Source of the DNA: Bryobacterales bacterium
GTDB lineage: Bacteria; Acidobacteriota; Terriglobia; Bryobacterales; UBA6623
Assembly: GCA_022823865.1 (NCBI GenBank)
Contig: JAJEHF010000208.1
Coordinates: 1-64,000, forward strand
Direction: 5' to 3'
Length of the DNA: 64,000 bases
The notes beneath the pieces are model-generated. The model saw only the letters and a list, made by a program, of their open reading frames with translations. It did not search any database and was not told the origin of the DNA. Every line of letters begins with the position of its first letter. Positions within the stretch are counted from its first letter, which is position 1. Positions 32,730 through 35,431 of the stretch are shown piece after piece. A program made the translations under genes and the position numbers.

Positions 32730-33007
32730 TCGTGAATCCCTCCAGGCTCTCTCAGTGCCAGGCAGGTCTCTATTCTCGCCTTGATTGAGGCTCGCTCGCA
32801 CGCTGGCGTGTCGGCCGAAATCGAAGGGGGCGACCATCATCCGACTCAGGGCTCGGTGGTGGTGCGCGCTCATGCGTCACGGCGGCTCGGGGAATGGAAC
32901 CCAAGCGCCTGGTCTGTCTCGGGACTCATATCCATCCTGTATGCCCTCCGGTCTATCGATTTGGTTCCGAAGCCCGTGAAGTCATGGCCGATGGGTGATA
33001 CCACTGG
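32730..33007. other. Intergenic region; no gene seen
   Basis: The space between the sulfatase start and the cassette carries the sulfatase promoter and Shine-Dalgarno. Open frames on the plus strand here have no coding character. It contains nothing else I can name. If the small ORF at 33008-33295 is not real, the gene-free stretch extends to 33291. Confidence 0.4.
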
Positions 33008-33295
33008 TCAGGATTCCCACGCCTCGATCGTATGCTCGACACGTACCTGCACGTAAGCGTCAGCGTGCCGGGCGAAGCGTTCAGCATCTACCTCGGTCAC
33101 AGGAAGATGCGCGTTGATTCCTTTCTCGTCCGATCCTTGCCTTCCGCCGAATGCGTGTCTGCCGCCGAGGCGGTCCGCGGCCTCGGTTCCGCCACGACTT
33201 GGGAACTGGGATCGACCGGGACGGACGGCAATGACGAGGACTTCGTTAGCTTGCACCGTGCATGGCGCACGGTCGTGGTCGGAACGGAAAGTCAC
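33008..33295 (-). CDS. Possible small third gene of the cassette (95 aa, unknown)
   Basis: A GTG start at 33295 overlaps the stop of the upstream 437-residue gene in a GTGA arrangement, the usual sign of translational coupling. The product is basic in its middle and ends with an amphipathic stretch (TEVDAERFARHADAYVQVRV). Third-codon GC content looks moderate and similar to the upstream gene. Against it, a plus-strand frame (33032-33394) has higher third-position GC. No family is recognised. I give it just under even odds. Confidence 0.4.
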   Translation of the reverse strand: MTFRSDHDRAPCTVQANEVLVIAVRPGRSQFPSRGGTEAADRLGGRHAFGGRQGSDEKGINAHLPVTEVDAERFARHADAYVQVRVEHTIEAWES

Positions 33296-34605
33296 GATGC
33301 GAGCGCGGCAGAACTCAGCACACCGTGGTTGAGCAGTGTAGATCTAATCAGCCAAGCCGACACATTGAAGTGCTGTGCCGCGTCCTCGATGTAATCGTCG
33401 TCCGGAACGTTGGATCCGAGGTGATCACGTAGCGCTTCGAACGGACACAGGAAAGCCTGTGCGAAGGCTCGCTGGAATTGCTGCCGCTCAGACCCCGTAT
33501 CCGTCACCGGAAGCAGCCTGTCACCGTCTGCCGCTAGCAGATGGTCTCCGATGATGCGTGCAAGGGCGAATCGGCGGCCAGTGGGATGGCGCTTCTTTAG
33601 CGAGGCCACGAGACAGTCTTTGTCTGGGCAGCTGCGGAACCCGGCGGGAATTGGAACGTTTTCCTCGAATCCAAGATGGATCCATTCCACCGAGACTTTA
33701 CACAGTTCCGCCAGCGTGTGGTTATCTACCGTGTCTCGGTCAATCGACCACTCGCGGCGCACTAGCTCGGCTAGCGCTGCCCCCTTTCTCCAAGGCTTCT
33801 GGTTGCGGATCTTAAGGCTTGCAGCTTCGGCCTTCATTTTTGGTGTTATGTCAAGCCGCATAAGGCACGATCTCTGACGAACATCGCGCCAGAGTGCCTC
33901 GAAGTCTTCCAGCGCCCGGCTCTTCGAGGACGCTGCCAGTTCCCCGACGGGATCGCGACCAACCTCATCCGCGGCGTGGCGAAGGCCGGCGAGTACAGCC
34001 GGTTCCGCCTCTTCCGGGTCGAATCCCATCCTAGCCTCGATCACCCGGTCAAAGCTCAATACTGGATCTTCGATTTCCTGGCCGAGATCGCGCCAAGCAG
34101 ACAACAATTCCTGCGGCCCGTCCGCGTCTTGACTGGCCCAAGATTGCAACCGTGAGGCTACCGTTTCTACGAAGTCTCGCACCGCATTCTCGAATTCGTC
34201 CGCCGGCACATGAATATTCACTTCGCTCAAGAACCGCAAGGGCGATGTCGTACCCAAGCTGATGGGGTTGGACCGAATCTGCACGGTTGCATCACCGCCC
34301 ACGAACTCCAAGTCTGGCCACAAGTAGCCGTTCCCGGCAGCACCGACTCGGTGGCTCATGTTCCAAGACACCCCTTCTCCTTGCATCTCCCAGCGCAATC
34401 GCCACCAGTTCGCGATGAACCACGAGGCGAGATCGTAAGCAGACACCCGTATTCCTGACCGGTAGGCGCGGGCGTGAGTGTCTACTAGCGCAGTCACGGG
34501 CACGCCATCGGCCTCAATCCCTACTTCAGCTAGGAAATGGCGATTCGCCGCGCCGCCGGAGGCGGGCTCCACCCATCGGCAATCGATCCTAAACTTACCG
34601 CTCAT
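33292..34605 (-). CDS. Large unknown protein with a C-terminal ImmA/IrrE-like (M78) domain lacking HExxH
   Basis: A 437-residue protein. Residues ~1-150 read as a beta-rich domain with a Trp-rich core (WFIANWWRLRWE, 62-73). Residues ~265-310 are helical, with a short helix-turn-helix-like run (AALAELVRREWSIDRDTVDN). Residues ~340-430 have the layout of ImmA/IrrE metallopeptidases: RRFALARIIGDHLL where RRFTLAHELGH is usual, then ERQQFQRAFAQAFLCPFEALRDHL and a C-terminal AAQHFNVSAWLIRSTLLNHG. The zinc-binding HExxH is replaced by ARIIG, so proteolysis is unlikely. The upstream gene overlaps its start by 11 bp. It may be a regulator or a sensor; function unknown. Confidence 0.7.
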   Translation of the reverse strand: MSGKFRIDCRWVEPASGGAANRHFLAEVGIEADGVPVTALVDTHARAYRSGIRVSAYDLASWFIANWWRLRWEMQGEGVSWNMSHRVGAAGNGYLWPDLEFVGGDATVQIRSNPISLGTTSPLRFLSEVNIHVPADEFENAVRDFVETVASRLQSWASQDADGPQELLSAWRDLGQEIEDPVLSFDRVIEARMGFDPEEAEPAVLAGLRHAADEVGRDPVGELAASSKSRALEDFEALWRDVRQRSCLMRLDITPKMKAEAASLKIRNQKPWRKGAALAELVRREWSIDRDTVDNHTLAELCKVSVEWIHLGFEENVPIPAGFRSCPDKDCLVASLKKRHPTGRRFALARIIGDHLLAADGDRLLPVTDTGSERQQFQRAFAQAFLCPFEALRDHLGSNVPDDDYIEDAAQHFNVSAWLIRSTLLNHGVLSSAALAS

Positions 34606-35017
34606 GCTGGCCCCACAGGCTGATTATGACCTCTCTAAACGGATCTGTCTTGGGCATCGGATATCCGTGATACGTGCCCGCGCTCTCATTCTCCAATTGC
34701 GCCTCGACGGGATCACCGCCTTCAGTCACCGCCCAGATGTTCTGGGGGAAGCCCGCGCGGACCTGGCGACTGACGAGGCCTCGACGGGCGCCTTCCTTCA
34801 AGAGCCGCAGTGCAGTCGCCCGGTCCAGGACCTCTATCCAGTCGCACTTTGACTTATCCGGACGCGGTTGGACGGGCGGCGTCAGTCCGAAATCGCCGGG
34901 CCTCTCCTTGTGCTCTGGGTTCCCCGTGTAGCTTACTCGATCAGCTAGCTTCTTGAGCTCCTCAATGTCCCAGCCGTGAGCGACTCTTCGCTTCGGATTG
35001 AATCTGCGGCGTGGCAT
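34595..35017 (-). CDS. Small basic protein of unknown function, first gene of the cassette (140 aa)
   Basis: ATG 35017 (MPRRRFNPKRRVAHGWDIEE) is chosen over an in-frame start at 35122, whose extra 35 residues look non-coding. The protein has a basic N-terminus, a mid segment YTGNPEHKERPGDFGLTPP, a helical part (ATALRLLKEGARRGLVS) and a C-terminal beta-rich part with FPQNIWAVTEGG, EAQLEN and GTYHGYPMPKTDPFR. The density of Gly, Pro and aromatic residues suggests a conserved, folded family. Its last 11 bp overlap the start of the ImmA-like gene, so the two are coupled. No family name can be assigned. Confidence 0.65.
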   Translation of the reverse strand: MPRRRFNPKRRVAHGWDIEELKKLADRVSYTGNPEHKERPGDFGLTPPVQPRPDKSKCDWIEVLDRATALRLLKEGARRGLVSRQVRAGFPQNIWAVTEGGDPVEAQLENESAGTYHGYPMPKTDPFREVIISLWGQHER

Positions 35018-35431
35018 CGATCTGCCCGAGTTCTTGCTGAAACCCTTGGCGCTGAAGTGCAGAAATCGTCGGATCCGACTTCTCGCACTCCACATTTGAA
35101 TGTTACACGGAGAATCTTCCACTTCGCAGAGAATGCGGCTGGACGATTCTGGGATAGACGTGTCTGGGACACAGCCTCTCGGATAGGAAGAAGCATCGCA
35201 ATTGCGTCATCGTCATGGGAGGTTGCCCGTACTAACCGCACAGCAGACTACGAAACAACTAACCTCGGCAGCTCTGCGTAGCGCAATCTCTTGCCGTACG
35301 TCGGGCACGCAACGAGAGCCATCCAGCGGACCCTGTCGAACCCGAGTGTCCAGTGGCGATTCGCGAACTCGTTCACCGAGTGCGCTGGGCGCTCTTGTCT
35401 CCCTTGTCCTAGGCTCTGGCAGCCCGTGGCC
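35018..35431. other. Gene-free stretch upstream of the cassette
   Basis: About 414 bp between the cassette start and the end of the next sulfatase. It contains relatively AT-rich patches near 35090-35260. Short frames exist on both strands, but none has a plausible start, length or codon usage. It should hold the cassette promoter; I see no clear hexamers, repeats, att-like sequences or RNA gene. Confidence 0.4.

What the first reader, a model, noticed from the sequence alone, without database searches (positions are those of the whole stretch)
33008..35017. Compact cassette: small basic protein, ImmA/IrrE-like protein without HExxH, and a possible third coupled ORF
Three minus-strand frames overlap end-to-start (11 bp, then GTGA). 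The central 437-aa protein keeps the ImmA/IrrE scaffold (RRFALARIIGDHLL, ERQQFQRAFAQAFLCPFEALR) but lacks the zinc site. ImmA-type proteins usually cleave repressors in mobile-element or stress switches; a catalytically dead version fused to a Trp-rich beta domain, with a conserved-looking small partner, suggests a sensor or regulatory complex, perhaps defence-related. It sits between sulfatase genes with ~400 bp of gene-free DNA upstream and has lower third-position GC than its neighbours.
Basis: partly seen in the sequence, partly recalled or inferred. Interest (0 to 1): 0.75.

Follow-up and report, generated by a model that had tools for sequence, protein, structure and literature searches.

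The report
Toxin-antitoxin-like pair with dead protease
Two overlapping bacterial genes, found together in many phyla, look like a toxin and its guard, where the guard descends from a protein-cutting enzyme that has lost its cutting site across the sampled family.

Summary
A 140-aa protein (P1, 34595-35017, minus) and a 437-aa ImmA/IrrE-like protein without HExxH (P2, 33292-34605, minus) overlap by 11 bp. The third frame has no relative outside this locus among the loci held. P1 and P2 form a module: 80 of 80 P1 loci fetched (of 170 found) and 4 of 4 plasmid loci carry P2, whole or in part, directly downstream. None of 82 P2 proteins has HExxH. Three congeneric genomes that keep both flanking sulfatases lack the pair at this site, so a bare ~2.4-kb cassette was probably gained here. 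A sister family pairs a P1-like small protein with a zinc-intact ImmA; a tree fits one zinc-site loss before the P2 family. Best reading: P1 is a toxin and P2 a non-proteolytic antitoxin, related to ImmA-type antitoxins of RosmerTA. Evidence: P1 is broken beside intact P2 in six loci and the reverse was not clearly seen; a P1-like domain ends one polymorphic-toxin-like protein; three of six sister loci lie near known toxin-antitoxin genes. New variant of a known kind.

The parts
34595..35017 (-). P1: 140-aa basic small protein, putative toxin; conserved Y30, H36, K37, R52, C58, W95, E105, Y116-H-G-Y-P120
   Evidence: no Pfam, PADLOC or NCBIfam match for P0001 at E up to 1
33292..34605 (-). P2: 437-aa ImmA/IrrE-like protein without zinc site, putative antitoxin; its start overlaps the P1 end by 11 bp
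33355..33588 (-). degenerate Peptidase_M78 domain of P2 (residues 340-417)
   Evidence: Pfam PF06114, 13.7 bits, below the cut-off of 22; 33 of 55 relatives scanned match M78 at E up to 1, best 9e-7
33544..33558 (-). place of the lost HExxH (residues 350-354, RIIGD here; most zinc-intact sisters have HELCH)
   Evidence: alignments
33856..34605 (-). N-terminal part of P2 (about residues 1-250) with conserved Trp and W67, E73, H85, G93, P97
   Evidence: residues from 20 on aligned with zinc-intact sister proteins by profile comparison
32900..35265 (.). stretch present here and absent from three congeneric genomes; edges differ by relative (32900-35265, 32933-35320 or 32867-35361)
   Evidence: blastn of the window against L241/L253, L244/L255, L243/L254
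35018..35431 (.). 414 bp between P1 and the upstream sulfatase, where a promoter would lie; one imperfect 11-nt inverted repeat (35111-35121 / 35140-35150)
   Evidence: no function shown
33008..33295 (-). third frame of the finding: judged not a gene
   Evidence: no relative outside this locus among the loci held

Best explanation
The locus is a two-gene toxin-antitoxin-type module. P1 is the toxic effector; its molecular target is unknown. P2 is its antitoxin, built on an ImmA/IrrE protease scaffold whose zinc site was lost before this family spread, so it must neutralise P1 by binding rather than by cutting. The genes overlap, so that P2 is probably made together with P1. The module moves between genomes as a bare two-gene cassette, also on plasmids, and by kinship with ImmA-type RosmerTA antitoxins would probably act in abortive defence or in stabilising mobile DNA. 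Shown here: pairing, absence of HExxH across the sampled family, homology to zinc-intact sister pairs, presence here and absence at the same site in three close relatives, one-sided breakage. Inferred: toxicity of P1, neutralisation by P2, loss of cutting, defence role.
For: Pairing: 80 of 80 genome loci and 4 of 4 plasmid loci; of 81 loci measured, the start aligned with that of P2 overlaps the P1 end by 8 bp in 26 and by 4 bp in 24. Zinc site: HExxH in 0 of 82 P2; in a 74-sequence tree of the C-terminal domain the 56 zinc-less P2-family proteins split, with local support 1.0, from 17 zinc-intact proteins and one ordinary M78 protein that lost HExxH separately (a first tree of 70 gave 0.996). 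Sister pairs: P1 family versus sister small proteins, hhalign probability 97.5, E 6.7e-12; P2 family versus zinc-intact ImmA proteins, 99.6, E 1.8e-23; negative control, P1 versus the ImmA profile, 0.1. The sister profile also finds four P1-family loci by HMM at E 2.5e-5 to 3.1e-4. Breakage: of 118 distinct loci, 96 intact pairs, 6 with P1 broken beside intact P2, none clearly with the reverse; probability 2.2e-4 if breaks fell by length. A 270-aa protein (L207) ends in a P1-like domain (93.7, E 1.8e-7 to the P1 family over 65 columns); its N-terminal part matches one RHS-repeat protein and four annotated HNH endonucleases. Three of six sister loci lie within about 2 kb of MazEF, VapC/Phd or a ParDE-like pair. 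ImmA domains are described as antitoxins of RosmerTA (PMC10440598, passages and section 6); PADLOC RmrA matches P2 at E 0.0017 and three zinc-intact sisters at best E 9.8e-12 to 1.5e-15.
Against: No toxicity or neutralisation data. P1 (P0001) matches no family in Pfam, NCBIfam or PADLOC at E up to 1, and no RmrT model was hit by it or by 59 family members. The polymorphic-toxin link rests on one protein that lacks the N-terminal half of P1, and Pfam finds no pretoxin domain in it. Breakage counts are small and partly from metagenome assemblies; L089 has an internal stop in P2 together with an out-of-frame P1 start, and counting it against gives 1.2e-3. The same asymmetry would arise if P2 merely had a second job. 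Two of three zinc-intact sisters scanned match PADLOC capP better than RmrA (E 1.5e-14 and 4.8e-14), which would fit a regulator. Three of six sister loci showed no toxin-antitoxin gene nearby. Enrichment of defence genes was not shown. P2 is about three times longer than P1, unlike many antitoxins.
Confidence: 0.65

Rival explanations
1. Two-part sensor or regulator: dead ImmA binds a ligand or nucleic acid, P1 is its structural or signalling partner, and no toxin is involved.
For: Loss of catalysis while the scaffold is kept is typical of sensor pseudoenzymes (general knowledge); P2 keeps a conserved N-terminal part of unknown function; P2 persists intact without a detected P1 in L179 and L184; two zinc-intact sisters match PADLOC capP best; 4 of 55 P2-family members match Pfam HTH_17, best 4.6e-5, place in the protein not shown.
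Against: No conserved regulated neighbour: the most widely shared neighbour family occurs in 6 of 84 loci; breakage is one-sided; a P1-like domain ends a polymorphic-toxin-like protein.
Confidence: 0.18
2. Dedicated anti-phage system in which P1 and P2 act as one complex triggered by infection (RosmerTA- or Menshen-like), rather than a general toxin-antitoxin pair.
For: PADLOC RmrA match of P2 at E 0.0017; PADLOC NsnC matches of two sister small proteins (best E 7.1e-8) and of 5 of 59 P1-family members (best 0.0062); Massilia plasmid copy next to dptFGH; HerA, SIR2, PtuA, NucC and AriA models among the nearest neighbours.
Against: Control proteins also match many PADLOC models: 113 families from 120 proteins, against 207 from 147 near and 156 from 143 farther ones. 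No phage assay. Not exclusive of the best explanation.
Confidence: 0.12
3. Reversed polarity: P2 is the toxin and P1 the antitoxin.
For: Gene order alone does not decide; PMC10440598 gives 58% toxin-first for ImmA-type antitoxins.
Against: Intact P2 without intact P1 occurs (6 broken and 2 undetected P1); intact P1 without P2 was not seen; ImmA domains are reported as antitoxins in RosmerTA.
Confidence: 0.05

Closest known systems
RosmerTA (RmrT/RmrA)
   Same: Two-gene module with an ImmA/IrrE-type protein as antitoxin and a variable partner; toxin-first order in 58% (PMC10440598, passages and section 6 read)
   Different: P2 lacks HExxH in all 82 members checked and matches RmrA only at E 0.0017; P1 and 59 family members match no RmrT model at E up to 1; no HTH match in P0002 itself at E up to 1, though 4 of 55 family members match HTH_17 somewhere
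Sister pair: P1-like small protein plus zinc-intact ImmA (L091, L197, L200, L204, L205, L210); the large protein is annotated ImmA/IrrE family metallo-endopeptidase in the two plasmid records L204 and L205
   Same: Same gene order; both proteins homologous by profile comparison
   Different: The sister keeps HExxH and its small proteins are diverged. I found no name for the small protein in Pfam; PADLOC gives NsnC for two of the three small proteins scanned
NsnC of the Menshen defence system (that NsnC belongs to Menshen is recalled, from no call)
   Same: The C-terminal stretch of the NsnC model matches two sister small proteins (E 7.1e-8 and 0.0055) and, weakly, 5 of 59 P1-family members
   Different: Menshen has a DUF262 gene and a predicted OLD nuclease (PMC10952713, passages); no neighbour family is constant here
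ImmA/IrrE (Peptidase M78) antirepressor proteases
   Same: Scaffold of the C-terminal domain of P2
   Different: No HExxH; no partner repressor gene noticed

Membership tests
Peptidase M78 (ImmA/IrrE) active protease | HExxH zinc motif | tested here: not met
   0 of 82 P2 proteins; three shorter P2 rows (L076, L089, L115) were left out of that alignment
Peptidase M78 (ImmA/IrrE) active protease | M78 domain by profile | tested here: inconclusive
   P0002 13.7 bits against a cut-off of 22; 33 of 55 relatives match at E up to 1, best 9e-7; strong profile match to zinc-intact sisters
RosmerTA | RmrA-type ImmA antitoxin gene | tested here: inconclusive
   PADLOC RmrA E 0.0017 for P2; best RmrA E 9.8e-12 to 1.5e-15 for three zinc-intact sisters, two of which match capP better
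RosmerTA | RmrT toxin gene | tested here: not met
   No RmrT model among the matches of P0001 or of 59 P1-family members at E up to 1
Type II toxin-antitoxin module | Two adjacent, co-directional, closely spaced genes that occur together | tested here: met
   80 of 80 genome loci and 4 of 4 plasmid loci; spacing
Type II toxin-antitoxin module | Intact toxin gene not found without an intact antitoxin gene | tested here: met
   118 distinct loci, no clear exception; L089 ambiguous, three P2 cut by contig ends
Type II toxin-antitoxin module | Toxicity of one product, neutralised by the other | not testable with these tools
   needs expression in a laboratory strain
Menshen | Operon with constant DUF262 and OLD-type partner genes | tested here: not met
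   No neighbour family recurs in more than 6 of 84 loci; single DUF262 or OLD neighbours were not looked for

The most novel reading that the evidence does not exclude
A cross-phylum toxin-antitoxin and defence family in which a protease antitoxin turned into a permanently dead, binding-only antitoxin, paired with an unnamed toxin superfamily (C, W, E, YHGYP signature) that also serves as the warhead of polymorphic toxins and as the C-terminal domain of a known defence protein (NsnC). That would link ImmA-type toxin-antitoxin modules, polymorphic toxins and Menshen through one effector domain.
Probability: 0.42. Interest if true: 0.75.

Novelty: new variant of a known kind. Interest (0 to 1): 0.58.

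Why it matters
ImmA-type antitoxins are thought to work through proteolysis: PMC10440598 (section 6) suggests cleavage as with ImmA and ImmR. A natural, widespread branch without HExxH that still keeps its partner in 96 intact distinct pairs would show that cutting is dispensable for this kind of antitoxin, and offers zinc-intact and zinc-less relatives to test why. The P1 domain would be a new toxin superfamily shared by intracellular and, possibly, secreted toxins.

Tried and rejected
Third coupled gene: rejected, no relative in the loci held. Phage or virus carriage: P1 gave no match in phages and no confirmed relative in viral contigs (12 pattern hits, none confirmed; the patterns came from an alignment of P1 and four close relatives only). 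A sister small protein (P0006) gave no plasmid or phage match, and another (P0010) only one weak archaeal plasmid hit (E 0.6) with no ImmA gene annotated nearby. Solved structures: the P1 profile gave only chance-level matches (best E 0.69); the P2 profile matched apolipoprotein E (best E 8e-4), judged a helical-composition artefact. Apparent long P1 frames in L100 (759 aa) and L208 (251 aa) were judged open reading frame extensions, by eye, not fusions. Defence-island enrichment: counts of PADLOC families are not counts of genes, only 25 families per scan were shown, and a control set also scored, so I do not claim enrichment. The control came from 20 stretches in 20 of the 40 genomes with handles; 17 of 37 stretches asked for did not exist. 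NsnC in the window's own phylum: no match in 149 genomes and none in 14 control genomes, so uninformative; in 40 genomes that hold P1 loci it matched in 5. First tree: my motif filter had left out four ordinary M78 proteins of the window's genome, one of which (L006) lacks HExxH; they were added, where L006 groups with a zinc-intact protein (0.99), a separate loss. First small-protein comparison (96.5, E 1e-9) included the partner of a zinc-less protein (P0008); one search leaves it out. Literature: eight full-text searches turned up no paper on this pair in the listings; the library holds only openly licensed PMC papers, and of the listed papers I read passages of two and one section of one.

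Full report
What is there. On the minus strand, between two sulfatase-type genes, lie P1 (140 aa, 34595-35017) and P2 (437 aa, 33292-34605), overlapping by 11 bp. A third frame (33008-33295) overlaps the P2 end by 4 bp but has no relative outside this locus in any locus held, so I leave it out. P1 matches nothing in Pfam, PADLOC or NCBIfam at E up to 1; P2 matches Peptidase_M78 below the cut-off (13.7 of 22 bits) and the PADLOC model RmrA at E 0.0017.

The pair is a module. In 200 related genomes, the own one included, P2 was found in 14 and P1 in 12. A scan of one genome per species found 170 relatives of P1, of which the best 80 were fetched. All 80 have P2 directly downstream (cut by the contig end in L076 and L115, in two pieces in L089), as do 4 of 4 plasmid records (Massilia, Sphingomonas, Allorhizobium, Rhizobium). 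Of 81 loci measured, 26 overlap by 8 bp and 24 by 4 bp at the start aligned with that of P2. Record titles span Pseudomonadota, Chlorobiota, Planctomycetota, Acidobacteriota, Verrucomicrobiota, Lentisphaerae, Spirochaetes, Armatimonadetes, Cyanobacteria, Bacteroidota and others (phyla recalled from the names). No third gene is constant: the most widely shared neighbour family appears in 6 of 84 loci. The genome of the window has three such pairs; the other two P2 are 32% and 29% identical to this one.

It was probably gained recently here. Of the ten other genomes of the genus searched, three (G001, G009, G010) hold both flanking sulfatase genes at 89-96% protein identity, and in all three the two genes are neighbours with 200-320 bp between the matches. 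DNA alignment places the extra stretch at window 32900-35265, 32933-35320 or 32867-35361, depending on the relative. No transposase frame was noticed in it; loss in the three relatives is possible but less economical.

The zinc site is absent in the sampled family. None of 82 P2 proteins has HExxH (three shorter rows left out); in its place stands a conserved RRFxxAR(x3)D with a downstream TxRQKxQRAFAxEFLCP. Scanned singly, 33 of 55 members match Peptidase_M78 at E up to 1, best 9e-7; 4 match HTH_17, best 4.6e-5. The P2 profile also finds ordinary M78 proteins in the same order, among them one of the window's genome (G000:C165, E 1.4e-7) that Pfam's model finds too.

There is a sister family with the zinc site intact. 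Beside its P1-P2 pair, Pseudomonas lopnurensis (L091) carries a 160-aa frame with a WHGYP motif overlapping a 462-aa protein with AHELCH. The same layout occurs in L197 and L200 (unnamed relatives of the window), in L210 (1507-1803, then an AHELCH protein) and on plasmids of Thiodictyon and Agrobacterium. Profile comparison joins both halves: small proteins 97.5%, E 6.7e-12 (this set includes the end of L207, see below; an earlier set that included one partner of a zinc-less protein gave 96.5%); large proteins 99.6%, E 1.8e-23 over 379 columns; unrelated control 0.1%. In a tree of the C-terminal domain, 56 zinc-less P2-family proteins separate from 17 zinc-intact ones with local support 1.0; an ordinary M78 protein without HExxH (L006) falls among the zinc-intact ones, a separate loss. 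Tistrella pTM2 carries a diverged zinc-less pair whose large protein still passes the Pfam M78 cut-off (29 bits). Azospirillum pairs a zinc-intact protein with a different 262-aa upstream protein that matches nothing in Pfam, a hint of partner exchange.

Why a toxin-antitoxin reading. First, breakage is one-sided. I took 122 places (84 chosen; a 52-aa P2 remnant, L030, and hits to ordinary M78 proteins were left out), of which 118 are distinct. 96 are intact pairs; in six P1 is interrupted by a stop or frameshift beside intact P2 (L011, L018, L072, L106, L107, L174); in two P2 is intact and no P1 was detected (L179, L184). The reverse was not clearly seen. Not counted as evidence: three P2 cut by contig ends (L015, L076, L115), L050 (unmatched P1 start), two with both genes damaged (L051, L159), L158 (at a contig start), five P2 fragments without P1 (L025, L027, L028, L186, L187), and L089, where P2 has an internal stop and the P1 start is in another frame. 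The one P1 without P2 (L036) itself lacks its last part. If breaks fell by gene length, six of six in P1 has probability 2.2e-4; counting L089 against, 1.2e-3. This fits a toxin that cannot be kept without its antitoxin, but also a P2 with a second job.

Second, a P1-like domain sits in the effector slot of another toxin type. In the Fuerstiella genome a 270-aa protein ends in LWGYKDGKAYRF...AWHGYPL (found by the NsnC model at E 4.5e-13). That end matches the P1 profile (93.7%, E 1.8e-7, 65 columns, the C-terminal half only) and the sister profile (97.0%, E 1e-10). Its N-terminal part matches, on plasmids, one RHS-repeat protein, four proteins annotated HNH endonuclease and two unannotated places, as pretoxin regions of polymorphic toxins do. 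Pfam finds no pretoxin domain in it, and this is one protein.

Third, company. Of six sister loci looked at, three lie near other toxin-antitoxin genes: MazEF about 2 kb away (L204), VapC/Phd about 0.6 kb away (L205), and a ParDE-like pair directly upstream (L091, recognised by eye); in L197, L200 and L206 I saw none. ImmA domains are described as the antitoxins of RosmerTA, with different toxins and often an N-terminal HTH (PMC10440598: passages and section 6 read). Three zinc-intact sisters match RmrA models at best E 9.8e-12 to 1.5e-15, but two of them match capP better (1.5e-14 and 4.8e-14).

Defence. The Massilia copy is next to dptFGH, and the nearest neighbours of 37 loci include matches to HerA, SIR2, PtuA, NucC and AriA models (25 of 207 families shown). 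But a control of 120 proteins from 20 stretches of genomes of the same set also matched 113 PADLOC families, against 207 for 147 near and 156 for 143 farther proteins. Families are not genes, and I make no claim of enrichment. Of three small partners of zinc-intact proteins scanned, two match the C-terminal part of PADLOC NsnC (7.1e-8 and 0.0055), and 5 of 59 P1-family members do so weakly, best 0.0062, the only family hit. That NsnC belongs to Menshen is recalled; PMC10952713 (passages) describes Menshen as having a DUF262 gene and a predicted OLD nuclease.

Mechanism. Most likely P1 is a toxin held inactive by P2, which binds it through the old protease scaffold and its N-terminal part; overlapping genes keep P2 in step, and loss or inactivation of P2 frees P1. 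That P2 does not cut is inferred from the missing motif. The target of P1 is unknown; I could not predict structures.

Verdict. A real, conserved module; a new variant of ImmA-type toxin-antitoxin pairs, with a family-wide dead protease and an unnamed small effector family. Eight full-text searches did not turn it up.

Noticed in passing
L091:10713-12573: A second, zinc-intact P1-like/ImmA pair about 1 kb downstream of the ordinary pair in Pseudomonas lopnurensis, with a ParDE-like pair just before it.
   Followed up: partly
L206:2975-5167: Azospirillum plasmid: zinc-intact ImmA-like protein preceded by a 262-aa protein without the HGYP motif, possibly an exchanged partner.
   Followed up: partly
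L207:1432-2244: 270-aa protein in a Fuerstiella genome with a polymorphic-toxin-like N-terminal part and a P1-like C-terminal domain.
   Followed up: partly
L072 and L107, P1 genes: In two unrelated genomes the P1 stop lies at the same invariant Trp position.
   Followed up: no
L006 (G000:C165): An ordinary M78 protein of the window's genome, over the Pfam cut-off, that also lacks HExxH; a separate loss by the tree.
   Followed up: partly
   Followed up: partly
window genome and its genus: Very many sulfatase-like genes: 47 to 72 matches per genome at E up to 1e-30 to one of the flanking sulfatases.
   Followed up: no
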